A DNA stretch of 64,000 bases, taken from Ryuthela nishihirai. Lineage: Eukaryota; Arthropoda; Arachnida; Araneae; Heptathelidae. The DNA lies in the NCBI GenBank assembly GCA_038380435.1, contig JAWZYU010000019.1:34373801-34437800 (forward strand), read 5' to 3'. The notes beneath the pieces were generated by a model that saw only the letters and a list, made by a program, of their open reading frames with translations, searched no databases and was not told where the DNA came from. Every line of letters starts with the position of its first letter. The first letter of the stretch is position 1. Made by a program: the position numbers and the translations under genes. Positions 1 through 47,385 of the stretch are shown here, one piece after another.

Positions 1-239
1 TTTCTTCCATAAACTGACAAACATTTCAGTATATGGTAATTCAAAACTAAAACATGTTTATCTTGTCTTACATTGAATGGAGACTTCCATCTACCTCCTA
101 AAATCTGTCCAGTTGATCCCCTACACAACTCTGCAATTCTTGAGATCTGACGGAGCGTGGTTGATCCAGCCTTTAGTAGCCTAGACTCGTAAAATTCAGT
201 TCTCACGTTGGATTCTGACCTGTGCCAGCTCTTTGATTT
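1..239. other. Duplicated segment, unassigned
   Basis: This stretch is repeated at about 44038-44280. It lies beyond the recognisable part of the RTE reverse-transcriptase fragment and I could not match it to that element or to the hAT transposase. A minus-strand frame runs through it in copy B without a recognisable domain. Confidence 0.4.
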
Positions 240-680
240 ATATACTTAATTTCCCCCCCCCACAATGTTCTCGTTTAAAACAGTGTTGGAGACCAGAAGC
301 AACGCTAAACCAATTTCTACACGCCTTATCACCTCTTATACAGGACTCAGTGTTATTATAGAGAGTTTCATTATGTTAACTAACTTTTCTGTTATGCCAT
401 ATTGTCACAATCAACCACAAATTACAGCGTTCAAAGAATCACAATAAAATTGAAAACGCTAGTAACCAAAGTTTTCTGAAGCTGTAAACATTTTTCAAGA
501 ATCTGCCTAAGTGAAAAAATCTGATCTACACATCACCTACCACTTCTGAATCCACATTGCGCATCACGCAATTGTCTGTGAATCAAATTCTCAGTTCTGT
601 TAAGTACAATCATGCAAAGGATTTAACTGGAACAGGAAGTAGGCTGATGCTCCTATAGTTATCACATAACTATATAATAT
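240..680 (-). pseudogene. RTE-like LINE reverse-transcriptase fragment (copy A)
   Basis: Read on the minus strand, this segment is clearly similar in DNA to the reverse-transcriptase region of the RTE element at 53714-57310, roughly 56000-56400 there. It covers the stretch from the conserved Asp-Asn-Tyr-Arg-Gly-Ile block to just before the motif B region. Stops and frameshifts interrupt the frame, so it cannot encode a working enzyme. The fragment abuts the C-terminal end of the hAT transposase at about 676-681 and replaces the usual hAT dimerisation region. The same junction occurs in copy B, so it predates the duplication. Confidence 0.75.
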
Positions 681-2068
681 CTTGGAAACGCTCCGTAAAA
701 TCAACATGAAGAACTTCCAAGTGTTGGCAGTAAGTAAGTTAATCTTCCGGTTTTGCAGAGACTGCTGATAATGTGGGAAAGTGGTTGTATTCACCTCTAC
801 CTAGATTTCGTTTGAATAGAAGAAGTTTTCCCGCAAAAGCAGCTATGACTTTTTTGTTTTAATTAAATTCAACTCATCACCTTGCAAATGTAAATTAACT
901 TGATTAAATATTTTAAACAGGTCTGTCAAATAAGCGATGCCATTTTTTGACGTAATCAGGTTTTCGCGCAATTTGTCGTCTCTATCTTCAAGAAAGTCCA
1001 GTACTGAGTCAAATAGATTGAGAAAACGATTCAGACAAACACCTTTAGAGAGCCAACGTACTTCTGTGTGCAGCAGCAAGTGATTGTAATCTTCATCATT
1101 TTCATTACAAAGCTTACCAAATAATCGGTCATTCAATGAATTGCTTCTAATCTTATTGATTGCTTTAATAACGTAATGGAGCGACGTATGCAGACGTTCA
1201 TTCAAATTTTTTGCAACCAAATGCTGACGATGAATAATACAATGTACAGCGAGTACATTTGGTACTGCTTGTTTCAAATGCGCTATGAAACCCTTATGAC
1301 GCCCTCTCATTGCTGGAGCACCATCAGTAGCAGCAGACAAAATATTGCAAATAGGAATTTCTTTCTCTTGAAAAAACTTTTGCATGGTATTAAATATAGA
1401 TTCTCCCTTTGTATCAGATTCCAAATTTTTAGCAAATAATAACTCTTCATGAATTTTTTCTTCTTTTATAAATCGTACGTATGATAAGAGTAGAGCTTCG
1501 TTATTTGGTAGAGTATCTGATTCATCGAGTTGAATGGAAATTTGCAAGTCTTTAAGCAATCACATAATGATATTTCAACGTCTTTTGCCATTTCATCTAT
1601 TCTTCTTTGCACTGAATTATTACTGAGAGGAATTTTTTTGATGATATCTGACGGTGTCTTTTGATGAAGAACAGTTTTTAATATCTCTTTGACTGCCGGC
1701 AAAATTAATTCCTCGCCAATTGTGTGTGGTTTTCCTGCTTTTGCGATTAACAATGTAACGTTATATGAGGCTCGTAGTCCATCATCATCTTGTTTAGAAG
1801 ACGACGCAAAAAGGTTTGACATAGTTGGCTGTTTTAAATATTGCTTTTCCAGTTCTTGAAAATAGGATAAATCTTTGTTCTTCTTATCAGCATGCATTTT
1901 ATTTAAATGCTCTTGTAGCCTAGAAGGTTTCATAGCTTCATTTGAAAAAACTTTTCGGCAAATTAAACACATAAGTAATGATTGGTTTGTAGGATAGTAC
2001 GTAAATCCATATTTCAAATACTCAATACTGTACTGCCGGCATTTCTTTTTAGATGCAGATTCAGACAT
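681..2068 (-). pseudogene. hAT transposase with BED finger, ZBED5/8-like (copy A)
   Basis: This is a hAT-superfamily transposase gene of the kind annotated as ZBED-like proteins. I set the start at the ATG at 2066-2068. Near the N-terminus is a BED-type zinc finger (Cys-x2-Cys followed by a His-x4-His pair, about 1900-1990). The conserved core follows: the Leu-Asp-Glu-Ser block near 1520, Thr-Asp-Gly-Ala-Pro-Ala-Met near 1315, the Cys-x2-His-Arg-Gln-His block near 1230 and a Thr-Glu-Val-Arg-Trp block near 1060. The frame is broken near 1530-1560 and again near 845. The C-terminal dimerisation domain is missing because the gene runs into an RTE fragment at about 680. No terminal inverted repeats were found. 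Copy B has different lesions in the same gene. Confidence 0.85.
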
Positions 2069-2581
2069 TTTCAAATACAAATTAATTTCTCAACATATTT
2101 ATAGATAGTTAAAAAAATAATGTTTATAATGACTTCTAACACTTATCACTCACGACTATTTATCCCGGCGAAGCACATAAAAATAATAAAACATTCCTTG
2201 AGCTATCGCTTTTATAGATTTGATTTTGTGCACGCATTAACTTGTATGTTTGCGATGCCGGCGCACTTGCTCCGTAAACAAGTCATTTCAAGCTCCCATA
2301 TTCTTGTCGAAACATGTTAAATTGCATGAACCGCGTGTTTGCCTACCAACTTGCAAGGACTTGTCACCGTCAATCTATTCTAAACTAAAACAAATTAGGT
2401 ATAGGTATACCTAATGCTAATTTAAAAATGCTTATTAACGCGATAACAACAAGATAATTTACATAGCTAGATAAAATATTTATTCATGAAAACAGGTATT
2501 TTCAAAGCATTTTATTATATTAAAAAAATTATAAAAAAAATATTAAATGTAATAAATTTATTATTATTATATTAGTATTGC
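2069..2581. other. AT-rich region upstream of the hAT gene, nothing recognised
   Basis: This short AT-rich stretch is shared with about 46314-46836. It holds A+T runs and no coding frame I could assign. It separates the hAT pseudogene from the 5'-truncated REL-LINE fragment. Confidence 0.4.
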
Positions 2582-2793
2582 ATCAAGGTTGATTTGCCTA
2601 TCAGGACGGACACACATGTCAAACATAATAAGCCTGATATAGTAGTGCATGTTAAGGTATTGAATGAGATTACAATTATTGAAGTAGGAATAACATCTCA
2701 GGATAACCTGCAGACAGTAGAGGTTGAAAAGAAGAGGAAGTATGATCTGCTGGCTAATGAGTTGAGCCTAATTCACAAGTGTAATGTTAATAT
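2582..2793 (+). pseudogene. REL-endonuclease LINE 3' end, first part (copy A)
   Basis: The plus strand encodes the C-terminal end of a site-specific-type LINE with a restriction-enzyme-like (REL) endonuclease. It shows a Lys-Pro-Asp-Ile-Val block, then Ile-Ile-Glu-Val-Gly-Ile about 12 residues on, then a Lys-Lys-Arg-Lys-Tyr block. This is the PD-(D/E)xK arrangement known from R2/NeSL-type elements. The reverse transcriptase is absent, so the copy is 5'-truncated near 2582. The frame is cut at 2793 by the LTR retrotransposon and resumes at 6984. The assignment to an REL-type LINE is good; the exact clade is not resolved. Confidence 0.65.
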
Positions 2794-3433
2794 TGTTACG
2801 ACAGAAGGAATCTGGCAACCGAAAGCAAAAAGTTTCAGCCAACGAATAAGAACGTTGGGAGAATTTGGAGAAGAAGAGTGGAGCGTTAACGGTCGTTGTA
2901 TTGTAACGGTCGTTGTGTTGTAACGGTCGGAGAGTTCGAAAATGGACGGTGAGCTGTTCTGAGACAGTGCGCGTAAGTATCAAGAAGTAACTTGATGTGT
3001 TGTGTATACGCGGAAGGATAAAAGTGGGATCTTTTATCGTTAAGTATCAAGAAGTAACTTGATGTGTTGTGTACACACGGAAGTATAAAAGTGGGAACTT
3101 TTATGGCTAACTTCGAATGTCTACACGGACTGTCTTTTTGTTCGGCTAGTGTGTGAACAGTTATTAGCACAGGACGAGAATTGGTTTACGGGTGAAGATC
3201 TTCGGGTGACCTGGTAAATCAAGTAAAAGGTAGTATTTAGTAAAATACACAGAGCTGATATTGTGTGCTCTACGCAGGAAGATTGATGACTTGTGCATGT
3301 TAATAGTTGATTTGTTAATAAGATACTTCATCCATATTTCCTTTGTAACAATTTACCTTGTATTGAATTTGGTTTTGAAATATAGCTTTTAATACTCACG
3401 CTCAGTGGCTATCCATTTTTGTAATCCGCAACA
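2794..3433 (+). repeat. 5' LTR
   Basis: This is a 640-bp repeat that recurs at an offset of 3550 bp (6344-6983) with no difference noticed on reading. It starts TG and ends CA. A 67-bp tandem duplication lies inside it (2974-3040 and 3041-3107). Each unit ends in a TATA-like ataaaagtggga stretch, so the promoter region appears to have been doubled. Confidence 0.95.
3084..3090 (+). promoter_or_regulatory. Candidate TATA box of the LTR promoter
   Basis: A tataaaa motif lies in the second unit of the 67-bp LTR tandem duplication. The first unit has the weaker gataaaa at the equivalent place. It is the best TATA candidate in the LTR. Its position, about 345 bp before the LTR end, is plausible for a U3/R boundary but untested. 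Confidence 0.4.
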
Positions 3434-3435
3434 TT

Positions 3436-3452
3436 TGGTGTCAGAAGTGGGA
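3436..3452 (+). promoter_or_regulatory. Primer-binding-site-like sequence
   Basis: Two bases after the 5' LTR comes tggtgtcagaagtggga. Position, the leading TGG (complement of a tRNA CCA end) and length fit a minus-strand primer-binding site. I did not assign the tRNA species. Confidence 0.6.
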
Positions 3453-3463
3453 TAATTTATTGA

Positions 3464-6439
3464 ATGCCGTTAACTAGAAGTATGGATGAATTAGTAAAGT
3501 TGATAAATAGCTTGAAAGCCGATATGAAAGATATGAAAGCCGAGATGGCTGCGCTGACTGATATGAAAGCCGATATGGCTGCGCTGATGACTGATAGGAA
3601 AGCCATTATTGCTACGCTGATGACTGATAGGAAAGCCGTTATTGCTACGCTGATGACTGATAGGAAAGCCGTTATTGCTACGCTGGTGACTGATATGAAA
3701 GCCGATATGGTTACGCAGATGACTGATATTAAAAGTGATCTAGCTGCCCAAAGCGATAAAATAGGTGACTTGAAAGCCGAAATGGCCGCACAAAATACTG
3801 AGATGAGAGATGAAGTGGCTCCTCAAGTTGGTAAGATTATTGATCAGTTCAAGGATAGTAAAACCGAACTCAATAGACAATGCAATAGTTTAAATGTTGA
3901 ATTTGTCAGTGAAAAAGATGATCTTGATAGTGTTAAGTTAGATTGTAAACATGGAAAAGAAAAAGAGAAAGGCAACGCATATAAAAATGTGGATCTGCTA
4001 CTGGAAATCAAGAATCGTAGAGATAGCGCAGATAATGCCTTTGACCACGCAACTGCTGGTGATGCATGGCAGAATGTCTATGTCGCTGGTGACATGTCTA
4101 GGAACTGTGAAGAACAATCACACAGATCAGAGAGCTGTGAGACTATACAGTACGCTTTGCACTTCAAAATACCTAGGTATACAAGTCTGGCACGATCTGA
4201 AGAGAGATCCACACGAAAGGTATTCTATTCCTCGCCGTCAGCAAAATGCGTCATGGACAATTATCGCAAAGGCAGAGTAACGAGTGGTAATGAGGGGGAA
4301 CGAAACAGAGTTTACGTTTCGCAGAGTGGTCCGAGTAAAGAAGAGGCGTCCATTCATCATAGAAACAAAGTGCCATTCGACGTTACCCGGGAAGTCGGAG
4401 AGATTTTTCCGAAGCATATAGCCACACTTGAATCGTTTATAGAAAGTGGGGATTTAAGGAAGAGGAATTCCGAAGAATGGCTTAGAAGCGTAACAGGTGA
4501 TGCTAGTAAAGGAGCTTCAGGCAGAGACAGTACTTCAAAGACTAACTTTCTGGATGAAACTAAGCCTCAGAGTTACGATCAGAGAGAAGTGAATCCCTCA
4601 GATAATTTCAACGTAGCCACGCTGAATTTCGTTTCTGAACAGTCAATGTGCAGATTTGGACATTATAACCATTTAGATTATAAGGATATAGAAAAGTTTT
4701 ATCACGACTACAAGAGCTCTAAAGTGGACAATATCATGTTACAAAACTCGTCGCTGATCTCCAGAATGAACAATTTGGCAATCATGACTGATGTTTCCCT
4801 GGCTAATTACAATGAGAGCTCCAAGAAAGTGAATTCCGAAGAAACAGCAACTATGACCTCCTCGGGTCATGTGTTTTGCTGGAGACCCGAGTGGCGCCAT
4901 CGGATGGTAGATGAAAACAGCACAGGAGGTGTCGGCAACAAAGTGAGTCTTGTCTTGGCTCCTGCACTTGCTGCTTTAGGTCTCAAGGTCCCTATGATCT
5001 CCGGTCGTGCTCTCCAATTGACGGGAGATACTCTGTACAAATTGGAATCCATCCCTGGCTTCACAGTCGACTGCACTAAAGATAAAATCGAGCAGATGAT
5101 GGAAGACGTCGGATGCTGCATCGTAGGACAGACAGAGGAGCTGGTGCCAACAGATAAGGAGATTTACCGCTGCAAGGATCTGACGGCTACCGTAGATAGC
5201 GTTCCTCTAAGGAGATGCTCAATTGTGTCCAAAAAGCTGGCTGAAGGAGTGTGCGCTTTGGTTTATGATGTTGAATTCGGAAAAGGAGCTATTGATCTCA
5301 TCAGTACAGAAGATGCTGTTGATTTAGTTAAGAAAATGGTTGCAGCATCACAAGCTCGTGGAATGAAGAGTTCAGCTGTTATCAGCAACATGGATTCACC
5401 TCTTGAAAACTCTGTTGACAACTCTCTGGAAGTGATGGAAGCTGTTCAGTGTTTCCTTGGTAACGGATCCTTGGAACTGCAAGAGCTCGTCGAAGAGTTA
5501 GGAGGAGAACTTCTGCGTTTGGTGAACATTGTGGATAATAGGGTAGATGAAACATCACGTGTCTGCAAGGTTCTGCATAACGGCAATGCTTTGAACAAGT
5601 TTCATAACATGTTAATAGAACAAGGAGTATCTGAAGATGTTGCAAGCTGGCTATGTGAAGGTAAAACAGAAAAAATATTGCTAGCAGCCCGACACATCAC
5701 TGATTTCACTTATACAGGAGAAACAGGTAAGGTTGTCGGATTAGAAGCTGCAGTTCTAGCAAGAGTATGGAAGGAGGAGATGGACCGAAGAGCTAAAAAG
5801 AATTATGGAGCTGATATTATATTTGTGAAGCACCTTGGGGATCAAATTGAATCAGGTGAAATATGGCTGAAGGTTCATCACGACAGTTCTGAATTAAGTG
5901 AAAGTCAACTGACAAAAGGGTCAGACTGGAGGATGAAACTCCTCCCTAGATTTTATGTCACTAATGACTTTCATTCCTTGTTACTGTTGATAGAAGTAAA
6001 AATCCAAAGAAGAAAACTTTCGACAAAGAAGAAAACTTTTTACAGGTTTTGCACGAAAACTCTTAGTCGATTCTTCTCCCTGCGGAGACATAAACGTGTT
6101 CACAAGGGCTATAGGCCTTACACGTATTATATTTGTGGACGAGGCTTCAGTCAGAAAAGAAATCTAAGTCATAATGAGATTCGCTTTCATTTTGACACAG
6201 ACGTGGAATATCGCATTCGTCGACGTCCAGCTACAAAGAGCAAAGTGGTTCACGTGGATCGTTTGGCCCCGTTTCATCGAAGAACTGAAGAAACTTTGGA
6301 ATCCAGAATTGTTCGGGACGAACAAGACCTAGGGAGGGGGCAGTGTTACGACAGAAGGAATCTGGCAACCGAAAGCAAAAAGTTTCAGCCAACGAATAAG
6401 AACGTTGGGAGAATTTGGAGAAGAAGAGTGGAGCGTTAA
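3464..6439 (+). CDS. Chimeric 991-residue protein: Gag-like coiled coil, thymidine phosphorylase, zinc finger, integrase tail
   Basis: One uninterrupted frame starts at the ATG 30 bp after the LTR and ends 96 bp inside the 3' LTR. Residues 1-140 are a coiled coil with 13-residue repeats, as in Gag N-termini. Residues 140 to about 410 are hydrophilic and unrecognised. Residues about 410-465 may be a degraded phosphorylase alpha-domain, and about 465-824 are clearly thymidine phosphorylase (pyrimidine-nucleoside phosphorylase), a cytosolic enzyme of thymidine breakdown. It retains STGGVG (486-491), VPMISGR, CCIVGQTEELVP and TATVDS. Ser586 and Lys590 of the SIVSKK block are present, but the catalytic Lys-His pair is Glu484-Asn485, the conserved Arg is Lys571 and the GLGHTGGT signature reads ALQLTGDT (516-523). 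Residues about 871-905 are a degenerate C2H2 finger and about 914-940 a gypsy integrase C-terminal tail. Catalysis is doubtful. Confidence 0.88.
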   Translation: MPLTRSMDELVKLINSLKADMKDMKAEMAALTDMKADMAALMTDRKAIIATLMTDRKAVIATLMTDRKAVIATLVTDMKADMVTQMTDIKSDLAAQSDKIGDLKAEMAAQNTEMRDEVAPQVGKIIDQFKDSKTELNRQCNSLNVEFVSEKDDLDSVKLDCKHGKEKEKGNAYKNVDLLLEIKNRRDSADNAFDHATAGDAWQNVYVAGDMSRNCEEQSHRSESCETIQYALHFKIPRYTSLARSEERSTRKVFYSSPSAKCVMDNYRKGRVTSGNEGERNRVYVSQSGPSKEEASIHHRNKVPFDVTREVGEIFPKHIATLESFIESGDLRKRNSEEWLRSVTGDASKGASGRDSTSKTNFLDETKPQSYDQREVNPSDNFNVATLNFVSEQSMCRFGHYNHLDYKDIEKFYHDYKSSKVDNIMLQNSSLISRMNNLAIMTDVSLANYNESSKKVNSEETATMTSSGHVFCWRPEWRHRMVDENSTGGVGNKVSLVLAPALAALGLKVPMISGRALQLTGDTLYKLESIPGFTVDCTKDKIEQMMEDVGCCIVGQTEELVPTDKEIYRCKDLTATVDSVPLRRCSIVSKKLAEGVCALVYDVEFGKGAIDLISTEDAVDLVKKMVAASQARGMKSSAVISNMDSPLENSVDNSLEVMEAVQCFLGNGSLELQELVEELGGELLRLVNIVDNRVDETSRVCKVLHNGNALNKFHNMLIEQGVSEDVASWLCEGKTEKILLAARHITDFTYTGETGKVVGLEAAVLARVWKEEMDRRAKKNYGADIIFVKHLGDQIESGEIWLKVHHDSSELSESQLTKGSDWRMKLLPRFYVTNDFHSLLLLIEVKIQRRKLSTKKKTFYRFCTKTLSRFFSLRRHKRVHKGYRPYTYYICGRGFSQKRNLSHNEIRFHFDTDVEYRIRRRPATKSKVVHVDRLAPFHRRTEETLESRIVRDEQDLGRGQCYDRRNLATESKKFQPTNKNVGRIWRRRVER
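3583..3720 (+). repeat. 39-bp in-frame tandem repeat in the Gag-like coiled coil
   Basis: Three to four near-identical 39-bp units encode the 13-residue repeats in the coiled coil at the start of the chimeric protein. Unit-length changes keep the frame. The array suggests slippage growth of the coiled coil. Confidence 0.75.
6331..6343 (+). promoter_or_regulatory. Polypurine tract
   Basis: The purine run agggaggggg followed by cag ends directly at the first base of the 3' LTR. This is the usual position of the plus-strand primer of an LTR element. It lies inside the reading frame of the chimeric protein. Confidence 0.75.
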
Positions 6440-6983
6440 CGGTCGTTGTATTGTAACGGTCGTTGTGTTGTAACGGTCGGAGAGTTCGAAAATGGACGGT
6501 GAGCTGTTCTGAGACAGTGCGCGTAAGTATCAAGAAGTAACTTGATGTGTTGTGTATACGCGGAAGGATAAAAGTGGGATCTTTTATCGTTAAGTATCAA
6601 GAAGTAACTTGATGTGTTGTGTACACACGGAAGTATAAAAGTGGGAACTTTTATGGCTAACTTCGAATGTCTACACGGACTGTCTTTTTGTTCGGCTAGT
6701 GTGTGAACAGTTATTAGCACAGGACGAGAATTGGTTTACGGGTGAAGATCTTCGGGTGACCTGGTAAATCAAGTAAAAGGTAGTATTTAGTAAAATACAC
6801 AGAGCTGATATTGTGTGCTCTACGCAGGAAGATTGATGACTTGTGCATGTTAATAGTTGATTTGTTAATAAGATACTTCATCCATATTTCCTTTGTAACA
6901 ATTTACCTTGTATTGAATTTGGTTTTGAAATATAGCTTTTAATACTCACGCTCAGTGGCTATCCATTTTTGTAATCCGCAACA
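6344..6983 (+). repeat. 3' LTR
   Basis: This is the 640-bp partner of the 5' LTR, with identical ends and the same internal 67-bp duplication. It supplies the last 31 codons and the stop codon (6437-6439) of the chimeric gene. Confidence 0.95.
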
Positions 6984-7297
6984 ATATTATACCTTATGTT
7001 CTGACGTGGGATGGTATTGTAACTACGTACCATAAAGCATACTCAAAGCGACTTGGAGTGGGAAAACATATTGAAGCTTATATCCAATCTGTGATCTTGA
7101 AGAGAACTTTTGAGAGCATCTCAGTCGACTTCAGACGTACCAGTACGCTAGTAGGCGGTAGTAGGGAACTTATTGTCCAAGCTGCAGTTGAAAAGCTGTA
7201 CATGACGGATGAGGTAGTGGATGACGTGAATCACCAGGAAGACACCACAGAATAGAAGAGATAAAAAGGTTGTCACAGAAAATTCCATTATTACATC
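6984..7297 (+). pseudogene. REL-endonuclease LINE 3' end, second part (copy A)
   Basis: This continues the frame interrupted at 2793 by the LTR insertion; 6984-6987 is the target duplication. It encodes the rest of the C-terminal region, including Tyr-Val-Leu-Thr-Trp-Asp-Gly and Gly-Val-Gly-Lys-His-Ile-Glu-Ala-Tyr, and reaches a stop at 7253-7255. A short 3' end with agataaaaagg follows. In copy B the same 3' end continues into a simple aaatttatttattta tail; here the tail is missing because of the deletion described at 7297-7350. Confidence 0.65.
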
Positions 7298-7350
7298 CTG
7301 GCGCTTAATTAGTACACACACCCACATTGTAATTTTACATCCTGGCGCCC
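7297..7350 (+). other. Deletion scar with templated filler
   Basis: Copy B has about 4.8 kb between the LINE tail and the ttacatcctggcgcccc sequence at about 52197. Copy A has only a patch of about 40 bp. The patch contains ttacatcctggcgc (repeated again immediately after) and a 22-base stretch, tacacacacccacattgtaatt. That stretch is found in B only in the middle of the 4.8-kb block, at about 50841-50862. This indicates that A once had the block and lost it, with filler copied from nearby. Confidence 0.65.
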
Positions 7351-10300
7351 CTTTGGAATGTTTGCACCACCCCACCGGGTTTGGGAACCCTTATATGCAT
7401 ATTTGTCTTCCACTTCTACCCAAGAAACAATAAGAAAGTAGCATTTTACGTGCACAAACACACCTTTCCTAGAACTGTAGTTAATGGCTGCCAGGAAATA
7501 AAACATATGATCATGTCTATTAAGATAATATAAAATAACTTAAGATTCAGTAAGGATTGTGGTAAGGAAACTTTGCTCGTATCGTTTTATAACGAAAAAG
7601 TCAAAGTATTTATTATTAAAAGATAACTCGAACAAAAAATAATCACCATATCGCAATTTAATGCTGATCACAATTTTAAAAAGTTATTAAATTACTTTAA
7701 AAACAATTATGTATCTTTTGAGGTAATAAAAGGCTATTTATATCAGCCTTTAGCAAATACTTATTGGAAACATTTTTTGGAAAAATAAATATAGAAATAA
7801 AAAATTTTGCAAAATTTTCTGGAATTTTAGGCTTGATATATGGTATATGAAATGGTATATGGTAAATAAAAGGGGAATATGGGGGAACTTTTAAGGGAGG
7901 ATATGAAGGGTGGGGCATAGTGGGATTGGTTAGCTCCTCTTAGCAAGTCATTCACCTGATATTCGAGGGAATAGTTTGAAATTTTCTGAAAACTTTTCAG
8001 TAACGGAAAGGTGGCATTGTTGAACTTATGTACATAAAAATTAAAAAAAATAATGGTACGGTTTAATTTTACTTGATGTAATATATCTTCTATATTCAAA
8101 AGTGAAAAGTGATGATACCTCCTGAAAAATTAAATTTGAAATTAATACAAAACTACGACGAGCAGAAATATTTTAAAAATAAAATTATAAAAAAACACAT
8201 TAAAATGGACTTGAGTGCTATAACCAGACAAGTATTTTGATTGAAATTCTTGTAAATAATTTTCGAATTATGTTATTATAAATAAAATCTGTTAAAATAA
8301 AAAATGATTGTAATGTGGTCCAATGCATCTGTTTTCTCAATAACATACTTTTTAATACTTCTTTTCTGAAGTTCCTAAAACTAATGATACGTTAATTATT
8401 TGTAGTAAAGATAGATTAATAAAAATAGTTCGGCAAATTTATTTTATACTAATTATTAATTTAATGAAATATGTGATAACGAATTTTAATAGTATATTTT
8501 AGAACAATAAGCAATACGAGACATTCGTGATATACAATTGTCTACTTTTTTAATTTATCAAATTTCACTTGAAGTTTACAAAAAAATAATTATTGCATCT
8601 TTTATTTAACTAGCTGCCTTTCAAAGGTTGATGATTTTTCCTTGTTTCTGCTATTTGCTTTCAGTCTCAATTTATTGTAGTCTTTCCATTAATATAACCT
8701 CCTCCTTTGCAAATTAACGTAGTGCGTAAACTATATACACACATCTTTAATACATACGGCTCCTAAGTCTTGATAAATGTTAATTACCATTTTAAAACTG
8801 CTCAATTCTGTTGGTAGCTTATCTGTTCATTACGTTACTAATAAATAATTTCTACAAAACAATATTTTTCCGAATGGAAATTTTTCCGCGGAATTACAGA
8901 CTTATAGACTAGCAGCAATATTTCCTAGGAGAATTATCTGCCCCTTATGTCTAATCTCACCATCAAAAAGCGAGAAAATGCCTAGAAAAACAAACATAAT
9001 CCCTAATTGTTAAAACCTTGATGTTGAATTATTAACAAAATCCCACACAGTACGTATAGTATCGCTCAGAAAACTCAATAATAAAGTTTAAACACCCACA
9101 ATCCTATGAAAACTTCAACAACAGATCTTAAGCCTAACCCATCTTGACTAGAGATCTAAGAGAAGTTCATAGACACCGGCAAATTGCAACCGAGGTCCCC
9201 GACTCACCTAGACGGCGCATTCCGAGCACCCACCACCCTCAACCTGCTTGCCACCGACGCTGTTAGGCTTACGGGCGACATTATAAGTAACAACTTGGCA
9301 AAATTACAAGCATCTTGCAGGCTTACCTGGATTTTGCTACGTTCGTCTCCCTCGTAAAATCCAATTAGTAGGAATGCGTACGAACTGCAACTGATGTACA
9401 CGTATTTCCAAACACACTTATGAAACGTCGCAGTCAACGCACTCAGTTAACTCAAACATGCACCTATTCTGTTTCCAATATAACCATCTCTCCCAGGCAA
9501 AGCCCTGAACACATTTGCTTACGGATCGCGTCGATTGCTACTGTGGCGCCATCTCGTATGGGATTTATGCTCTGATGTTGCATCTACTCTCTCATGAGAG
9601 CAAATGGTTGCGAAGTGAAATGAAAATTTCGACGTGAGATTTTTTCGAAAAATGAAGTCTAAGAATTGAACTTTTTTGCTCAATGACGTAGTTACGGAAA
9701 ACAGCTTTTTACGGAGTTCTTAGTTTCTTAATATCGCAATATTTGTGCTGATAAAGGTTAAATTTTCCATTTAAGTAAAGTTGCTATGTTATTTTGAAGT
9801 AATTCGCTAATTTTAGAAGATTTCGTCTACTGATACTAATACAAGATGGAAAGGTAGAAAGGTGAAAGGGGCCATTACCCATTGATTTTCGTTTCGATTT
9901 AAAAACCGAAGATCACATAAACATTTCATTTATTTCGCAAATTGAATTTAATATAAAAAAGAATATTAAAAGAGAAGGGGAAAATATTGAAATACTGATT
10001 TATAAGAATAATTAAAAAATAATATTGGAACTGTATTATCTCAGTTTAATTCAATTTTGTATTAGCAATAATGAAATAATTATAATTATTCGAATCAAGT
10101 TACAATATTTGCAAGAGGTGGTGACTAATGAAGTAACTAAGATCCAAATTTTGGAGAAGCATGCTGATTTCTTCAAGGAGTCGCAATTATCACATGTATT
10201 CAATGACTTTAATAGGCAGTGACTTACCAAAGAAGGATGGTGAATAACCCTTTAAGGAAGGAAGGATTATAATTCCTCCTTTCTTAATGACTTAAAGAAA

Positions 10301-10540
10301 GTATTTTTTTCTAAAGAAATCCCATAAAATCAAATATTTGAGTGGTTACTTTTTCCCTCCCCACCCTCAATTAGAACTCAATCATGTCAAATTACCCACA
10401 CAGCATTAGAAACGGGTACGCCTCTGTTATTAGGACCCATTGTTTCAGAAGTTTGTTTTAATTAAAGCAGATACTCCCCTACAGAAAGAGCGGTGACATG
10501 ACAGTTATATATTAAGTTTGTTCTGTTTTCTCATATAAAA
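7351..10540. other. AT-rich duplicated region, no assigned gene
   Basis: This is collinear with 52200-53705 plus 57319-59040, interrupted there by the RTE element. Small indels between the copies do not respect any reading frame. A GC-richer island at 9180-9600, repeated at about 57640-58080, contains a GGCGCCATCT motif and a minus-strand candidate splice donor near 9330. I see no protein I recognise. The site where the RTE element inserted in copy B is intact here at 8853-8860. Confidence 0.5.
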
Positions 10541-10670
10541 AAAAAAGGCAAAAAAAAACAGGGCACGGTTAAGAATTTTTTTGCTCACCTGCAATGTCCT
10601 CCCTTTTTGGATCTATGAAGACTGAGCCAGATGTAATGTCCTCTCTTTTCGGGGCCTTTTCTGGGCCAAA

Positions 10671-11425
10671 TGTCGTGGCCGCCGGAGGACGATGCGATTA
10701 GTACTTAGAGAACTTCACCCTCACTTCGGTGAAAAAACAGGTTCACGAGTTTTTAGGCCCGTGGCACTGTATGCCTGATGTTCGCCACGTTGAATGATGA
10801 ACAACAATAGTCCACTAATTAACTGCATGAGAGTTAGATAGGGACGACTTAGTTTATTTACAATTTATACACTCAAGTGCTGGAGATACGCTCAACTCCG
10901 TGGGCCTTTGCTGCCTTGCTGCTGCAAACATTAATAATGAGGTGGAGAATCGCACACTCTGCAAGTTCTCACTTTACAGACCTCAAACTCGGCGAAAGGA
11001 TAATCAACCTTTGCCTACACTGTGGTTCACTCCGAATCCACAAAACTATTATCAGATTCTCCAAGAATCTCGATACCCTCTTGGAATCACACCCTCCCTT
11101 CAAGGGTTACTTCAAGTAAGATGCGGTGTCCTTCTGACGCATATCAAAACGACTCCCTCATTCGAAAGCTCACACCAAACTGTTGTCTCAAAAATCCCAC
11201 CTAGCCTCCTCGCTGCCACTAGCGCCCTTGGCTAGTCATTTACGGCCATAAACAACTTCTGGGATCGATCTTGATGCAAGCAGCCCGCTTCCGACCCGAA
11301 AACAACAACAGTGAGTCACATCCCAGTGCACAAACACACTTAATACATAAAACTATATACAATAATAAATGTACAATAGATATGTATCAATAAATAAATA
11401 AACATAAAATTCGGGGGACATGACA
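10671..11425 (-). repeat. 755-bp LTR of a second LTR element (copy A)
   Basis: Bounded by tgtcgtgg and catgaca, this gives TGTC...GACA inverted ends. The copy B equivalent has exactly the same length (59166-59920). On the minus strand it carries an AATAAA signal (10853-10858). A purine tract, gaagaaggggcg on the minus strand (11426-11437), abuts its 5' end, as expected for a 3' LTR. The internal region would then lie at higher coordinates and could include the repeat-protein gene. No second full LTR is in the window, and I found no matching target duplications. Confidence 0.6.
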
Positions 11426-11505
11426 CGCCCCTTCTTCAAAGAGTTTTATCAGTTTTTATGTGACTTATGAAACTCATAGCCTTTTTGTCGCTCGAATTTT
11501 CGTTA
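11155..11505 (+). repeat. 351-bp tandem duplication, unit 1 (copy A only)
   Basis: Positions 11155-11505 are repeated directly at 11506-11856. The unit joins the distal part of the LTR to the adjoining internal sequence. Copy B has a single unit. A few bases (ccctc/cctc) are shared at the junction. Confidence 0.9.
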
Positions 11506-11856
11506 CCCTCATTCGAAAGCTCACACCAAACTGTTGTCTCAAAAATCCCACCTAGCCTCCTCGCTGCCACTAGCGCCCTTGGCTAGTCATTTACGGCCAT
11601 AAACAACTTCTGGGATCGATCTTGATGCAAGCAGCCCGCTTCCGACCCGAAAGCAACAACAGTGAGTCACATCCCAGTGCACAAACACACTTAATACATA
11701 AAACTATATACAATAATAAATGTACAATAGATATGTATCAATAAATAAATAAACATAAAATTCGGGGGACATGACACGCCCCTTCTTCAAAGAGTTTTAT
11801 CAGTTTTTATGAGACTTATGAAACTCATAGCCTTTTTGTCGCTCGAATTTTCGTTA
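11506..11856 (+). repeat. 351-bp tandem duplication, unit 2 (copy A only)
   Basis: This is the second unit of the direct duplication, nearly identical to the first. It duplicates the PPT-like sequence and part of the LTR, so the element here has an extra LTR end (to 11776). Confidence 0.9.
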
Positions 11857-11927
11857 CCTCGTCAAGGCAATTGACCAATGAATGTTCCCACTGGAAGGCT
11901 GTCCAGTTAATTAACTATAGTGTTCAA

Positions 11928-11991
11928 AACGTCTCTGTCACTCAGAAGTAAATTAACGTGAGTTAATTTACTTCTGAGTGACAGAGACGTT
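11928..11991. repeat. Perfect 30-bp inverted repeat with 4-base loop (copy A only)
   Basis: The arms are 11928-11957 and 11962-11991, perfectly complementary, with gtga between them. Copy B (about 60070-60110) has only the left arm, so the right arm was made by copying the left one in inverted orientation in lineage A. Confidence 0.92.
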
Positions 11992-12144
11992 TGCTTTCAG
12001 TGTTCACTGACGGGTGACCTTCCATCATTTCCATTTTTACACTCTTAAGTTGTCAGTTCTCCCATTTATTGCAAACTCTGAGCCATTACTAACACCCCAG
12101 AAGTTTCCCTAAAGACAGTGTGCTGTTGTATAGGCCCAATCCGA

Positions 12145-13449
12145 TCAATTACAGTGTTGCAATTTCGCCGGTATATAACCTTCGTTCGATGCTCTGTGTC
12201 GAAGCAATGACACATCCATAATACTTCCCTTTGTCTTCAGGGCATCTGGAAGTCTCTTACTTCCTGGATAATTACAGGCTATTGTATGCACCTTATGTCT
12301 CATTTTGCAATTCTTCCTTTTCATTATGAGGCCGCAAGTACAATTATCTTCAAACTCTATTGACAATTGTTTTGCTAGTCTTGCTCCCTCTTTAATATGC
12401 CTTCTATTCCTTCTCTCATTACATTTTATCGAGCTTCTATGTTTCTTATTCTGGCAAATTTCTTCCGTCCGTTCAACACAGACGGCAATCATATTCTCTT
12501 TACAAATACTTTCATTATCTTTGCTGATTACGGTACCACAATCAACCGCTCTACCGGATAAATCCTTATCTATACACATTTTAACCTCATCCTTCTGACA
12601 TTTAATTTTCTCGCTCTCTATATCATTACATATTTTGCTCTCAATCAAGCCACTAGGCTCTATATTTCTTTCTCTGAGATTATTATCATTTCTACCATCC
12701 TTCTCCGCAACAGGTATCTTACTCAATATTTTATATTTATCCTTCATAGAAATACTTTCTTCACTAAATTTAGCCACAGCCCTATTACATAAATCCTTGC
12801 TTAAATCTTCCTTCTCAGCCTTCTCACATTTAATTTTGCCACTTTCTACATTACTACTCGCTTTTCTCTGAATTAAATCATTAGGCTGTAATTCTCTTTC
12901 TTTGATAATAATATTCTCACTATCACCTTTTTCCTTATCAGATATCTTACAAAATATCGCACACTTATCATTTAGAGAAATATTCTCTTTACTACATTTA
13001 GCCTCATTTCTACTACATAACTCTTTGTTTAAATCTAACTTAATCTCGTCCTTCTGACATTTAATTTCCTCACTCTTCACATTATTATTTATTTCGCTCT
13101 TAACAAAATCACTAGTTTCTAAATATCTTTCTCTGACAGTAATATTCTTCCTATCACCTTTCTCCTCATCAGATACCTTACAAAATATCTCACACTTATT
13201 ATTCAGAGAAAAATTGTCTTTGCCAAATGTAGCCACATCTATACTACATAAATCCTTACTTATATCTATCTTAATCTCATCCTTCTGACATTTAGTTTTT
13301 TCACTCTTTATATTATCTACTCCGCTCTTAACGACATCACTAGATCTTACATATCTTTCTCTGATAATAATATTCTTCCTATCACTGATAATAGGAATAT
13401 AATATTTCTCTAGTGGCTCTTCACTAAGTTTAGAGTGAACTGACCTGAC
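12145..13449 (-). CDS. Lysine-rich protein with about 77-residue repeats (copy A), unrecognised
   Basis: The frame is open on the minus strand from about 13449 to 12145. The N-terminal two thirds consist of about four tandem repeats of roughly 77 residues. Each has a Cys-rich SLNxKCxIFCKxSDxEKGD-type start, an RERxxxxSD middle and an xKCQKDEIK-type end. The C-terminal part is basic and contains Cys-Thr-Cys-Gly. I do not recognise a family. Copy B has an ATG at 61564-61566 that would start the protein; here that codon reads AGG, so no clear start remains, although the frame stays open. The gene lies upstream of the 3' LTR-like sequence on the same strand, so it may be an accessory gene of that LTR element. 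Confidence 0.5.
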   Translation of the reverse strand, partial: VRSVHSKLSEEPLEKYYIPIISDRKNIIIRERYVRSSDVVKSGVDNIKSEKTKCQKDEIKIDISKDLCSIDVATFGKDNFSLNNKCEIFCKVSDEEKGDRKNITVRERYLETSDFVKSEINNNVKSEEIKCQKDEIKLDLNKELCSRNEAKCSKENISLNDKCAIFCKISDKEKGDSENIIIKERELQPNDLIQRKASSNVESGKIKCEKAEKEDLSKDLCNRAVAKFSEESISMKDKYKILSKIPVAEKDGRNDNNLRERNIEPSGLIESKICNDIESEKIKCQKDEVKMCIDKDLSGRAVDCGTVISKDNESICKENMIAVCVERTEEICQNKKHRSSIKCNERRNRRHIKEGARLAKQLSIEFEDNCTCGLIMKRKNCKMRHKVHTIACNYPGSKRLPDALKTKGSIMDVSLLRHRASNEGYIPAKLQHCN

Positions 13450-13885
13450 ATAGATCCAGCATTTTTAGTGAGATTTCCAACAACAATCTTACAGATAATG
13501 AGATGGCCCAAGAACGTTGTTCCAATATATATATTTTTTAGCTTGTTTTCCAAAAAAGCAATTTGTTGTTTTCATTTTGTTCTCTTTCTATCTGTCTGTC
13601 TCATCCATCTGTCTGTAAACATTCAACATTTTTTCGAGATCTATTAATAATTCTTTTTGTGTTAGGCAAGTATTGATGAAACATTAGGATTCATATTTTA
13701 CGAATCTCCCAATAGCTTTAATAGTCTAGCGGTGAAAGTTTGAAAATGCTAAAATTTTAAACATACATTTCAGGCAATCATTTACGATAGAAGTGAAAAA
13801 TTTTGGTAGTGGGATGCGATGGTTAGGAGTTTTTCTTTTGGCAACAACGATTTTTCCGATTATCTCCAGGGAAGTGGGAAAGATA
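13450..13885. other. Non-coding duplicated stretch
   Basis: This AT-rich stretch, shared with about 61567-62007, has short T-rich runs. I see nothing assignable. Confidence 0.35.
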
Positions 13886-14489
13886 GATATTAATGAAATA
13901 CATTGCCAAAATATTAGAGAATTTCCATGTTATATCAATGGAAATCTGATTTCGAAGCACCAACACTTTTCAAATATGCATTTAATGGAAATATGTGATT
14001 GAATATAAATTAAACATCATAATCGAATCTATTTAAATCTCGATATTCAACAATATTCGCTTAGTATTTAAAGAGTTATGGAAGCTGGAATATTTCACAA
14101 TAGTAAAAGAAAATAAGAATTTACTTCAAAAATTAGTTAAAATTTAAATAATAAGTATTGTGTCAAACCATTTAATAAAATATATTAGAAATATATTAAA
14201 ATATATTATATATTAAAAGTTTTCTTAATGATTATTTCAATATTAGACAATTATGAATGATTTTTAAAAAACAAGATAGCCTTTTGTTAAATATTCCAGC
14301 TTCATAACTTTGAATACTGAAACAATATTGTTGAAAATAGAGATTTAAACAAATTTGATTATGATCTGTAATTTTCCCAGTCATATTCTCGATTAAACTA
14401 CATATTTTAGAAGTTACAGACCTTCGAAGTTAGTTTCCCATTGATATAACATTTTTGAATAATTTAGTAAGGCAGTGCATATTAACAAT
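13886..14489. mobile_element. Foldback MITE, family F (copy A)
   Basis: The two halves are inverted copies of each other. The arm at about 13886-14100 pairs with about 14275-14489, sharing blocks such as agctggaatattt, caacaatatt and atgttatatcaatgg in opposite orientation. Related copies are at 18431-19137, 26598-27171, 40105-40347 (one arm) and 62008-62588. It has no coding capacity. It is a long-inverted-repeat MITE of unknown superfamily. Confidence 0.7.
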
Positions 14490-15178
14490 TTTTCTCTTCC
14501 TGATCTAATTATAAAAATTCCCTATGGGAGAGGGATGGAATGCATGCCCTCCAATTCTCCAGATTCAATGGTGGTCAATCTGACCCAATATTCAAATATT
14601 GAGAAAAGAAAACAACTCTTCTAATGAGAATAAAAATTCCTCCACAGAAGTCAGGATCAACGCGATAGCTGACGGCCAGGTTATCCTCGATATCTGCAAA
14701 CATCTGAAGACAACTCCTTTCATTGCACCAGCATATCCCACGCGGCAGAAGTAACCAAATTTCATCCTGCCACATTTGACGTTGATATCGGCAATGCACA
14801 TCCATTCGGGAACAGCGAAATTTGCTTGCTAATGGAATCAAGTTCTGTTGCTCGGAGGTTGCGATCGTCTACCTTGGATACTACACACTTCACCAAGACT
14901 TGTGAAAAGCAGCGTGAGACGATACACCTAGGCCATCCACCAGCACATGGAACAGAGATCAGCGAAACTTGCCACTGGCTATGACCCAGAAATCTTTAAT
15001 AGTAAAGAAAAAAAATTCGTGGAAAGCTCAGCTTGAAGAAGCCGAAGTTTCGAAATTTTTATCCTCTTCGGAGAACGGAAGTTTTCGATTACGACATTTT
15101 AAAACGAAAAGATTGAGCTGTTTTCCTTCTAAGAAGAGATGAGTGAAAGAGGTGAATTGCACCAGGTTGTATTGCTTT
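14490..15178. other. Duplicated region, unassigned
   Basis: Shared with about 62589-63249. Overlapping minus-strand frames at 14575-14841 stay open in both copies, but the two alternative frames are equally open and neither shows a known domain. Confidence 0.35.
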
Positions 15179-15525
15179 GCCTCTGAGTGATACGTTTTTG
15201 GCCTACATTGGGTCAGGTCGCAAGGACCCCGAGGTTCAGAGAAGGCTGGGGAAGGGGATCCAATAAAGAGGGGTTAAGAGACCAGTTAAGGCCATTCAGA
15301 GTGTTCTTTAATATGCACAAAGTATGGCTCTATTCTGCTGCCAAGGCTTAACGTCTCATCAGACGAACGGTATCCTTTTCAAGCCCATCGATATCCCCTT
15401 TCTCACACAGGGCAAGACGAGCATTAACGAAGAAAAATCTTCACTCAGACACAGTTGAGACTCCAACCTGGGAACTGCAGATTACGAGCCTGGCTCGCTA
15501 ACGACTAAGCTAACCCAGCTCGGTT
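15179..15525 (-). mobile_element. tRNA-derived SINE, family S1, minus strand
   Basis: The minus strand begins with a tRNA-like head: an A-box-like ttagcttagtcgttagcg and a degraded B box, ggttggagtc. It then carries the S1 body (gagacgttaagcc; cttctctgaacctcggggtcc) and tail (ctcagaggcaaag). It is paired head to head with another S1 copy at 15614. The same pair occurs in copy B. Confidence 0.75.
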
Positions 15526-15613
15526 GAAAAAGGGAAACAAAACTTGAATGATTCAACTATTAATTAATATGTGAATGAATCTCTTTCCAAGCACTAAAAC
15601 TTTCGTACATTTA

Positions 15614-15990
15614 CTAAAGCCCAGGTGCCAGGCTCGTAATCTGCAGTTCCCAGGTTCGAGTCCCAGCTAGGTGAGCGTTGAGATTTATCTCCGCAAAATT
15701 CCCTGTCCTGCCCACGGTCAGTAGGGGGACACCGATGGGCTTGGAAAAGTCGCCATCCATCGGATGGCACGTTAAGACGTGGCGCTGTGTGAGGGAGAAC
15801 CATACCCTGTGCACGTTAAAGAACATGCTGGGTGGCCTTGACGGGAGGCTACCATTTGTCTACCAACAGCTGTTCCAGTGGGTTCCCTCCTCCAACCTTC
15901 TGTGAGCCTTCGGGGTCATTGTAACCTGGCCATTTCGCTCGTGGTGTGCAAAAAAGTGACGCTCAGAGGTAAAACAACCCAAACCCAACT
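15614..15990 (+). mobile_element. tRNA-derived SINE, family S1
   Basis: The head has the B box ggttcgagtcc near 15652. The body contains gagatttatctccgcaaaa, ggcacgttaagacgtgg and a ctgttccagtgggt block, and the tail is ctcagaggtaaaacaaccc. It is nearly identical to the copy at 63702-64000. It is the best full-length S1 example in the window. Confidence 0.82.
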
Positions 15991-32537: not shown

Positions 32538-33537
32538 TTAACCCTCTTGGCAGAAATATAACTTGACTAAAACTTTACCAAATTTAAAATGCAGTTGTTC
32601 TCCTGTATCGGTACGAAGGAAGATTCTGACATTCTCGAAACTGTTCCTTGCCAGGGGGTAGTCATCAGGTTGTTGATACACTGCAATGATGGCTTCGTTA
32701 TTATTGGATCTGACGGCAGGATTCACAACACGCAACAGTTCACCATGAGTATCACCTAACAACTGAGGTGCAATCAGGTCTGAATACAAATAGATACCGT
32801 ACATTCCTCTGTTCATATCGATGGGGTAGTCACCCATGGCTTTATTCAATGGAATATCTAATTTAGTTATTCCTAATATGTCTCCTAATTCTGGGTTTGA
32901 AAGAGGAAATTTAATGAAATGTAACTTGTCTGTATCCATCAACACTGTGTGCTCGTCCCGTTGTTTGAAACGGAAAGCTTTTCTCAGCTTGTAGGGCATG
33001 ACCTCGTTCATCGCATCGAATAATGATTCAGCAGTTTCGTATCGTCCGTGGGGTACCTTTCGTTCTTGGAAACTACCTGGAGGAATCACGTAGAAATAAC
33101 AGTCATCATCTATCTCGAATGTTGCAGTATTGCAAAGTTTGCTAGCAAATCGTTGGTGGAGGGGTTTGTCAACTTCTCCCTCACCGATACACAGAAGCCT
33201 GCTGAGATTCGTTTTAGGAAACATCAAACCGTATCCTTCACTTGGTTTGAATACCCAGTATCCACTGTTATATGACACCAATGTTTCTTTGGGGAGCTCA
33301 ATGGAGAGGTGAGACAACAGTTCCATTCCAGTTATTTTGCCTATTTTAAGCTTGATTTTCCAGTATTCTTCAAAGGGAGCACGAGCATAATATTCATACG
33401 TTTCATTAGAGCCATCGACATCGTACCAGCTTACGGGTAAGTAAACTTCTGCTAACCCCACTTTCCCTTTTCCACTTAGTCTTAGGGGTTGCGCTAAACG
33501 AACTGTGAAATCACTCTGCGAATTGTCATTGTAAATA
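32538..33537 (-). pseudogene. Polinton capsid-like protein (penton-like), N-terminus lost
   Basis: The minus strand is open for about 330 codons with no internal stop. The N-terminal part, Ser-Asp-Phe-Thr-Val-Arg-Leu followed by Gly-Leu-Ala-Glu-Val-Tyr-Leu-Pro, is typical of the second capsid protein of Polinton/adintovirus-type elements. No ATG precedes the conserved region. An in-frame TAG lies immediately upstream, where the integrase gene ends at 33544. The natural start appears to have been removed by a deletion that joined the two genes. The function would be virion structure. The family call comes from motif memory and is moderately certain. Confidence 0.6.
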
Positions 33538-33543
33538 TTCTAA

Positions 33544-43400: not shown

Positions 43401-44280
43401 CTTTTCTGATATTTTTTTACTAATGGGTCAAATTGCGTCGAAGAAAATAGTTCAGGGTGTGCTATCGTAACTTCTTCATTAGGATATGGCCAAGGAATTC
43501 CCATTCCATACACTCCTTCTACAACTGTACCTGAACTCGAGGTAATTCATTAATTTACATCATACACGAATGTTCGAATAATAGTCAAGCACACCGTCAT
43601 GTTATTTTTCCAGACAGTAAATATTCCCTATACATAATTACAAATTTGCAGAATTACGACTCCAACGGTTCCTTACTACATACGCTCTACATAACATTAG
43701 GTACACTCTTGAGTACACAAAATCTTTTGAATGTACTATTTCAATAGATATCGGTGCATTATTCCATCGCTTGGAAAAATCTCGCTGACAAATTGGCAAA
43801 TTAAGCTAGGAAGGAAAGTGTAATTATACTATTTTACATCATTTGTAATAAAGAGAGGGATTGATTAAAGTATTCTAGTGTTGGTGTAATATCACATTAT
43901 TCTTCATAGTGAAAAAAAAAAACTAATATGCATATATATATTTTTCACAGAAGAAATTCCAGAAGAATTTATAATTTTATTTCCGAATATGTTTTTTTTT
44001 TATTACACAAAAGCTCTCTTGACAATCTCGACAGGCCTTTCTTCCATAAACTGACAAACATTTCAGTATATGGTAATTCAAAACTAAAACATGTTTATCT
44101 TGTCTTACATTGAATGGAGACTTCCATCTACCTCCTAAAATCTGTCCAGTGGATCCCCTTACCCAACTCTGCAATTCTTGAGATCTGACGGAGCGTGATT
44201 GATCCAGTCTTTAGTAGCCTAGACTCGTAAAATTCAGTTCTCACGTTGGATTCTGACCTGTGCCAGCTCTGTGATTTATC

Positions 44281-46313: not shown

Positions 46314-46839
46314 TTTCAAATACAAATTAACTTCTCAACAGATTTATAGATAGTTATAAAAATAATGTTTATAATGACTTCTAACACTTATCACTCACGA
46401 CTATTTATCACGGCGAAGCAAATAAAAATAATAAAACATTCCTAGAGCTATCGCTTTTATAGATTTGATTTTGTGCACGCATTAACTTGTATGGTTGCGA
46501 TGTCGGCGCACTTGCTCCGTAAACAAGTCATTTCAAGCTGCCATATTCTTGTCGAAACATATTAAATTGCGTGAACCGCGTGTTTGCCTACCAACTTGCA
46601 AGGACTTGTCACCGTCAATCTCTTCTAAACTAAAACAAATTAGGTATAGGTATACCTAATGCTAATTTAAAAATGCTTATTAACGCGATAACAATAAGAT
46701 AATTTACATAGCTAGATAAAATATTTATTCATGAAAACAGGTATTTTCAAAGAATTTTATTATATTAAGAAATAATTATAAAAAAATATTAAATATAATA
46801 AATTTATTATTATTATATTATTATTGCATCAAGGTTGAT

Positions 46840-47385
46840 TTGCCTATCAGGACGGACACACATGTCCAACATAATAAGCCTGATATAGTAGTGTATGTTA
46901 AGGTATTGAATGAGATTACAATTATTGAAGTAGGAATAACATCTCAGGATAACCTGCAGACAGTAGAGGTTGAAAAGAAGAGGAAGTATGATCTGCTGGC
47001 ACTATGAGTTGAGTCTAATTCACAAGTGTAATGTTAATATTATACCTTATGTTCTGACGTGGGATGGTATTGTAACTACGTACCATAAAGTGTACTCAAA
47101 GCGACTTGGAGTGGGAAAACACATTGATGTTTATATCCAATGTTCTCTTCAAGATATGTGATCTTGAAGAGAACTTTTGAGAGCATCTCAGTCGACTTCA
47201 GACGTACCAGTACGTTAGTAGGCGGTAGCAGGGAACTTATTGTCCAAGCTGCAGTTGAAAGCTGTACATGACTGATGAGGTAGTGGATGACTAGAATCAC
47301 CAGGAAGACACCACAGAATAGAAGAGATAAAAAGGGTGTCACAGAAAATTCCATTAAATTTATTTATTTATTTGACCGCCCCTGT
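46840..47385 (+). pseudogene. REL-endonuclease LINE 3' end (copy B)
   Basis: This is the uninterrupted counterpart of 2582-2793 plus 6984-7297. The Lys-Pro-Asp-like block (mutated), Ile-Ile-Glu-Val and the Lys-Lys-Arg-Lys-Tyr block are recognisable. Frameshifts occur near 47000, at the hairpin 47142-47174 and near 47270. Unlike copy A it keeps the 3' tail aaatttatttatttattt (to about 47378), which marks the natural end of the LINE. Confidence 0.65.
47142..47174. repeat. Perfect 14-bp hairpin with 5-base loop (copy B only)
   Basis: The arms are 47142-47155 and 47161-47174, with loop atgtg. Copy A (around 7090-7115) has only the right arm, so the left arm is an inverted copy made in lineage B. 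Confidence 0.9.

What the first reader, a model, noticed from the sequence alone, without database searches (positions are those of the whole stretch)
2794..6983. Young LTR retrotransposon that has captured a cellular thymidine phosphorylase
The element has apparently identical 640-bp LTRs, a 4-bp target duplication and a confirmed empty site in copy B. Its whole coding capacity is one open frame in which about 360 residues are unmistakably thymidine phosphorylase (VPMISGR, CCIVGQTEELVP, TATVDS and SIVSKK blocks). Capture of host genes by LTR elements is known in plants and retroviruses. A nucleoside-salvage enzyme fused to a Gag-like region in an animal gypsy-type element is, to my knowledge, not a described family.
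Basis: partly seen in the sequence, partly recalled or inferred. Interest (0 to 1): 0.92.

Follow-up and report, generated by a model that had tools for sequence, protein, structure and literature searches.

The report
Jumping gene carrying a captured enzyme
A young retrovirus-like jumping gene in an animal genome, probably a chelicerate's, has swallowed most of a cellular thymidine phosphorylase gene and multiplied with it to more than a hundred nearly identical copies, although the swallowed enzyme has probably lost its activity.

Summary
Confirmed and extended. Window 2794-6983 is a 4,190-bp LTR element: identical 640-bp LTRs, ATAT duplication, empty site in a paralogous copy. Its 991-codon frame holds residues 460-823 homologous to thymidine phosphorylase (TP; E 1.5e-77 to human TP), closest to chelicerates. 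It is not a one-off: the 3.11-Gb genome has at least 109 TP matches at 96-100%. Of 22 fetched loci plus the window, 9 are TP-type and 8 are gag-pol elements with the same LTRs. The TP-type equals that gag-pol element with everything between the Gag coiled coil and the last ~80 Pol residues replaced by 2.24 kb: ~290 unidentified residues, TP lacking its N-terminal domain, and a decayed zinc finger. Only ~166 residues are Gag. The TP is probably catalytically dead: Arg202 is Lys in 29 of 29 copies; pN/pS is 0.96, against 0.05 for the partner's RT. It most likely moves in trans with the gag-pol family (inferred). Retention of the open frame is suggestive, not proven. No cellular TP gene was found (inconclusive). 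A new variant of a known kind; nearest analogue maize Bs1.

The parts
2790..2793 (.). target-site duplication ATAT, left copy
2794..3433 (+). 5' LTR, 640 bp, identical to the 3' LTR
   Evidence: at least 40 genomic LTR matches at 99-100%
3436..3452 (+). primer-binding site TGGTGTCAGAAGTGGGA (tRNA-Leu by recall, no tRNA was tested)
   Evidence: sequence
3464..6439 (+). single open frame of 991 codons: Gag coiled coil, unidentified stretch, TP, zinc-finger remnant, Pol tail
3464..3962 (+). Gag N-terminal coiled coil with 33-bp repeats, shared with the gag-pol elements; 5' junction at about 3962
3963..4840 (+). unidentified stretch, absent from the fetched gag-pol elements, with codon-position bias (chi2 35.5 against a maximum of 19.0 in 500 control windows)
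   Evidence: no match
4841..5932 (+). captured thymidine phosphorylase, residues 460-823, without the N-terminal domain and C-terminal tail
6014..6190 (+). decayed C2H2 zinc-finger piece (metal ligands lost, judged by eye)
6200..6439 (+). last ~80 residues of Pol (48 codons before the LTR), shared with the gag-pol elements; 3' junction at about 6200
6330..6343 (+). polypurine tract TAGGGAGGGGGCAG
   Evidence: sequence
6344..6983 (+). 3' LTR
6984..6987 (.). target-site duplication ATAT, right copy
47037..47040 (.). empty target site in copy B of the duplicated region

Best explanation
A recent insertion of a non-autonomous Ty3/Gypsy-type retrotransposon subfamily. A gag-pol element of the same genome had everything between the Gag N-terminal coiled coil and the last ~80 Pol residues replaced by a 2.24-kb insert that looks like cellular RNA: most of a chelicerate-type TP coding region, a zinc-finger piece and an unidentified coding-like stretch (shown by comparison of copies). 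The likely route is reverse-transcriptase template switching at short homologies (inferred). The chimera keeps LTRs, primer site and polypurine tract and is copied by Gag-Pol made by the autonomous partner, with which it exchanges LTR sequence (inferred). It has amplified to at least 109 copies (shown). The TP part is a passenger: no detectable amino-acid constraint (shown), catalysis probably lost (inferred from residues). The frame from Gag to the Pol tail may still be kept open, perhaps because a Gag-coil-headed protein helps packaging or the RNA escapes decay (hypothesis).
For: Insertion anatomy. Partner elements with zinc knuckle, protease, RT, RNase H, integrase in that order (L010 in pieces) and identical arrangement outside the insert; 5 of 8 gag-pol loci have one uninterrupted gag-pol frame. 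Same junctions in 9 of 23 loci. At least 109 TP matches at 96-100%, 108 without a stop in TP. LTR pairs identical in 16 of 17, 4-bp duplications in 16 of 17. R202K in 29 of 29, H116 kept in 3, K115 kept in 18; R202S, K115E, H116F and H116K of human TP are inactive. pN/pS: TP 0.96 (0.60-1.69) in 29 copies against RT 0.05 and integrase 0.04 in 10 copies each. TP-type LTRs do not form their own group. Frame: 137 substitutions, 0 stops, P 0.0038 in the 9 LTR-chosen copies.
Against: No cellular source gene was found for TP, so capture from this host's RNA is not shown. The 290-residue stretch has no source. R202K is conservative and was not among the tested mutants; K115A of human TP stays active. 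The LTR tree has mostly low support, no TP-gag-pol LTR pair is identical (minimum 2 differences), and the loci were chosen because their LTRs resemble the window's, so low LTR divergence is partly built in. Frame retention: three of nine indels in the 9 LTR-chosen copies are 1 bp; in 29 copies P is only 0.07, and 20 of those come from a list that favours open frames. Only 109 of 2554 candidates were scored.
Confidence: 0.8

Rival explanations
1. The TP is a working or moonlighting module kept for the element's benefit, for example altering thymidine pools during reverse transcription, somewhat as dUTPase may do in other retroelements.
For: Open frames in 108 of 109 scored TP matches; S217 and K221 kept in 29 of 29; dUTPase and other enzyme frames occur in LTR elements.
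Against: R202 replaced in 29 of 29, H116 in 26 of 29; 10 of 52 residues invariant in 25 other TPs changed in the window copy, at most 3 in any other; pN/pS near 1; N-terminal domain not recognisable.
Confidence: 0.05
2. The captured gene was already a divergent, inactive cellular paralogue of TP, so the residue losses predate capture.
For: The element's branch (0.66) is no longer than root-to-tip paths of spiders, and R202K is shared by 29 of 29 copies.
Against: K115, H116 and the TGG motif still vary among copies, so part of the loss happened after capture; no such paralogue was found, but the search was weak.
Confidence: 0.2
3. The element entered this genome by horizontal transfer with its TP from another chelicerate.
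For: No cellular TP detected here; family very young.
Against: The gag-pol partner with the same LTRs lives in the same genome; absence of the cellular gene is not shown.
Confidence: 0.1
4. A normal host gene lies between two unrelated LTRs, or the picture is an assembly artefact.
For: None found.
Against: Identical LTRs, duplication and empty site; at least 109 copies on many contigs; same junctions.
Confidence: 0.01

Closest known systems
Maize Bs1 LTR retroelement
   Same: LTR element that transduced pieces of several host genes into a chimeric coding sequence (PMC13317346 passages; PMC7264820 passages)
   Different: Plant; other genes (H+-ATPase, xylan endohydrolase, glucanase); the passages say nothing of a large young family beside a gag-pol partner
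LTR-mediated retroposition in metazoans (Tan et al. 2016)
   Same: Host mRNA retrocopies between LTRs by template switching; paper not held, known here from citations and passages in PMC8232201, PMC5408686 and PMC9674220
   Different: Whether high-copy families with an in-frame Gag-host-Pol fusion are described there I could not read
Crocodilian ERVs with captured KIT-ligand and nectin3 mRNA
   Same: Animal LTR retroelements that took in host mRNA; the KIT-ligand copies are described as intact and under purifying selection (PMC4299795 passages)
   Different: Retroviruses of vertebrates; here the cargo is an enzyme without detectable amino-acid constraint and replaces gag-pol
Bdelloid rotifer LTR retrotransposons with enzyme-like ORF3
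   Same: Invertebrate LTR elements carrying enzyme-derived frames (GDSL esterase, DEDDy exonuclease, dUTPase) (PMC5408684 abstract and passages)
   Different: There the frames are additional to gag-pol and invariant catalytic residues are reported intact

Membership tests
Ty3/Gypsy LTR retrotransposon (the LTR family) | Two LTRs with short target duplication | tested here: met
   Window; LTR pairs and duplications in 16 of 17
Ty3/Gypsy LTR retrotransposon (the LTR family) | Pol order protease, RT, RNase H, integrase | tested here: met
   Partner element L010, searched in pieces; RT phylogeny not made
Ty3/Gypsy LTR retrotransposon (this element on its own) | Encodes protease, RT, RNase H and integrase core | tested here: not met
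   Only the Integrase_p58_C tail is recognisable
Non-autonomous LTR derivative with transduced host gene | Own cis signals, no pol enzymes, partner with the same LTRs | tested here: met
Non-autonomous LTR derivative with transduced host gene | Insert derived from a spliced host transcript | tested here: inconclusive
   No intron-like insertion in TP, but no host gene found
Non-autonomous LTR derivative with transduced host gene | Mobilised in trans by the partner | not testable with these tools
   Inferred from shared LTRs and recent copies
Thymidine phosphorylase (active enzyme) | Fold and sequence of the alpha/beta domain | tested here: met
Thymidine phosphorylase (active enzyme) | N-terminal domain (Glycos_trans_3N) | tested here: not met
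   Not matched; shuffles do not support the stretch before TP
Thymidine phosphorylase (active enzyme) | Active-site residues K115, H116, R202, S217, K221 (human numbers) | tested here: not met
   No copy of 29 has all five; R202 is K in all 29

The most novel reading that the evidence does not exclude
A former metabolic enzyme has become the body of a retroelement-encoded fusion protein (Gag coil, dead TP fold, Pol tail) whose frame is kept open because the protein helps its own RNA into, or keeps it stable for, the partner's particles: a pseudo-enzyme domesticated by a transposon and spread in at least 109 copies, in a genome where no ordinary TP gene was detected.
Probability: 0.2. Interest if true: 0.82.

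Novelty: new variant of a known kind. Interest (0 to 1): 0.64.

Why it matters
The host-gene capture has founded a young, high-copy subfamily that lives beside its gag-pol parent in one genome. Capture junctions, dependence on a partner, decay of the cargo and possible selection on the open frame can therefore each be tested there. It adds a nucleoside-metabolism gene to those seen inside retroelements, with evidence that the enzyme activity was not what was kept.

Tried and rejected
Rejected: unrelated LTRs around a normal gene. The whole N-terminal half as Gag. A TP with its N-terminal domain: a low-stringency tblastn reached into it, but for seven TPs 26 to 345 of 500 shuffles scored as high. 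A G-to-A mutational signature: 6 of 15 resolvable changes, P 0.003 to 0.11 depending on the assumed transition bias, so not claimed.

Led nowhere: protein search with residues 1-480 (none among 8000 candidates); PDB and Pfam searches of the middle stretch (weak only); structure model of residues 134-455 (mean pLDDT 31); Rfam and tRNA scans of the window; LTR-end pattern in viral and prokaryote collections. Host TP gene: PF02885 gave one bacterial-looking stretch, a spider TP N-terminus nothing (best E 6.35), a TGGTLDKLE pattern only a further element copy, L053. These three do not show absence: exons may be split, and element copies crowd out matches in the TP region. DNA searches of the genome with the TP, the middle stretch and the tail did not complete. 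In one search the printed 'in-frame stops' are gap codons miscounted by my script; one search has the corrected counts.

Not in print, as far as searched: 'thymidine phosphorylase' with 'retrotransposon' (15 papers, titles and abstract starts seen, none about such an element).
Full report
OBSERVATION. The two 640-bp LTRs are identical and end at TGTT and AACA. The flanks repeat ATAT, and a paralogous copy of the locus about 44 kb away has the unoccupied site with one ATAT. A primer site (tRNA-Leu by recall) follows the 5' LTR and a purine tract precedes the 3' LTR. One frame of 991 codons fills the interior; residues 460-815 match human TP at E 1.5e-77.

ORIGIN OF THE TP. With the TP part as query, 5469 of 8000 scored candidates matched; the 12 best are two horseshoe crabs, six named spiders and four unnamed sequences at 44-49% identity. 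In a tree of 26 sequences the window's TP groups with the spiders and the four unnamed sequences, support 90. The alignment shows no intron-like insertion.

FAMILY. The genome search scored 40 LTR matches, all at 99-100%, of 1271 candidates, and 109 TP matches at 96-100% of 2554 candidates. 108 of the 109 cover the whole query and one all but a residue; 108 have no stop within it; 93 of 109 lie in open frames of 900 codons or more. These counts are lower bounds, and the ranking favours open frames. From the LTR list I fetched 16 paired elements and 6 further LTR neighbourhoods. Of these 22 loci, 8 are TP-type (L009, L016, L018, L020, L021, L022, L025, L028), 8 are gag-pol type (L010-L014, L019, L023, L024), 2 are gag-pol derivatives lacking 5' parts (L015, L017), and 4 stretches held one LTR and no TP (L026, L027, L029, L030). 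The gag-pol type carries a zinc knuckle, protease, RT, RNase H and integrase (L010 in pieces); 5 of the 8 have one uninterrupted gag-pol frame, 3 are split. LTR pairs are identical in 16 of 17 elements and differ at one site in L018; a 4-bp duplication was seen in 16 of 17. L025 and L028 have 0 and 3 LTR mismatches plus 8 and 2 gap columns. For the window copy 0 of 640 differences bounds LTR divergence at about 0.5%.

STRUCTURE OF THE CAPTURE. TP-type and gag-pol type agree from the 5' LTR to about window 3962, though with varying 33-bp repeats, and again from about 6200. The 2.24 kb between replaces the rest of gag and all but about the last 80 Pol residues. It contains the unidentified stretch, TP and a C2H2 remnant. 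Short shared letters lie at both junctions, as expected of template switching, but the RNA partner is unknown.

STATE OF THE TP. In human TP, K115E, R202S, H116F and H116K are inactive while K115A is active (PMC2719695, passages). In 29 TP copies (the window, 8 chosen by LTR, 20 chosen from the protein-ranked list), R202 is K in 29; H116 is N in 25, H in 3, Y in 1; K115 is K in 18, E in 10, R in 1; S217 and K221 are kept in 29. R202K itself was not among the mutants seen. Of 52 residues invariant in 25 other TPs the window copy changes 10; no other sequence changes more than 3. pN/pS of TP is 0.96 (0.60-1.69) in 29 copies and 0.92 (0.54-1.97) in the 9 LTR-chosen ones; the same measure gives 0.05 for RT and 0.04 for integrase in 10 gag-pol or derivative copies and 0.27 for the capsid region in 8. 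The partner's enzymes are constrained, the TP not detectably so. The unidentified stretch is at 0.47 (0.26-0.91).

IS THE FRAME KEPT? In the 9 LTR-chosen copies the insert and Pol tail show 137 distinct substitutions and no stop created by one (expected share 3.98%, P 0.0038). Of 9 indels 6 are multiples of 3 (all 5 in TP), and 3 are of 1 bp, one each in L025, L009 and L016, the one in L025 breaking its frame early. In 29 copies: 106 substitutions, one stop, P 0.07, and 5 of 5 TP indels multiples of 3. A neutral-decay simulation that matches the 17 of 88 changed chelicerate-invariant residues leaves TP stop-free in roughly 1-5% of runs. All this is suggestive only.

HOW IT MOVES. TP-type copies lack protease, RT and integrase core, yet are about as young as gag-pol copies by their LTRs. 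With one LTR from each of 23 loci, mean differences per 640 bp are 3.3 within TP-type, 4.3 within the rest and 3.8 between (minimum 2 between, 0 within); TP-type LTRs form no group of their own in a weakly supported tree. Synonymous divergence in the insert (1.7-4.2%) exceeds LTR divergence (about 0.6%). The simplest reading is continued LTR exchange with the partner during reverse transcription of co-packaged RNAs. The loci were chosen for LTRs close to the window's, so part of this contrast is built in; the reading stays an inference.

WHAT IS KNOWN. Maize Bs1 is the nearest analogue (passages). LTR-mediated capture in animals is described (passages), and bdelloid LTR elements carry enzyme-derived frames. 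In some searches I saw no TP-carrying retrotransposon.

OPEN. The cellular TP gene was not found, which is inconclusive. The source of the 290-residue stretch is unknown.

Noticed in passing
window 1-15913 and 44038-63999: Two blocks of the window repeat each other at about 94-97% in the same order about 44-48 kb apart, with differing insertions; this is the duplication that supplies the empty site.
   Followed up: partly
window 2594-2793 and 6984-7254: The element sits inside a coding-looking stretch that reads like the 3' end of a non-LTR retrotransposon (by recall; Pfam found nothing in the left part).
   Followed up: no
window 32538-33539 (-) and 47368-48399 (-): Frames resembling Polinton/Maverick capsid (recall) and a weak DNA polymerase B match, E 0.015.
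   Followed up: no
window 54269-57078 (+): Endonuclease and reverse transcriptase of a non-LTR retrotransposon in two overlapping frames.
   Followed up: no
window 11155-11858: A 353-bp tandem duplication at 99.4% identity.
   Followed up: no
L051 (G000:C16:11096433-11099534): A 64% GC stretch with long bacterial-looking frames, trpD- and trpC-like by recall, inside a 75-Mb contig of the host genome: contamination, symbiont DNA or transfer.
   Followed up: no
window 3524-3752; L009-L025: 33-bp repeats coding for the Gag coiled coil differ in number and order from copy to copy.
   Followed up: no
G000:C28:53531915 and 53535371; G000:C1:30088226 and 30091653: Pairs of TP matches about 3.4 kb apart with equal scores: possibly tandem elements sharing an LTR.
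   Followed up: no
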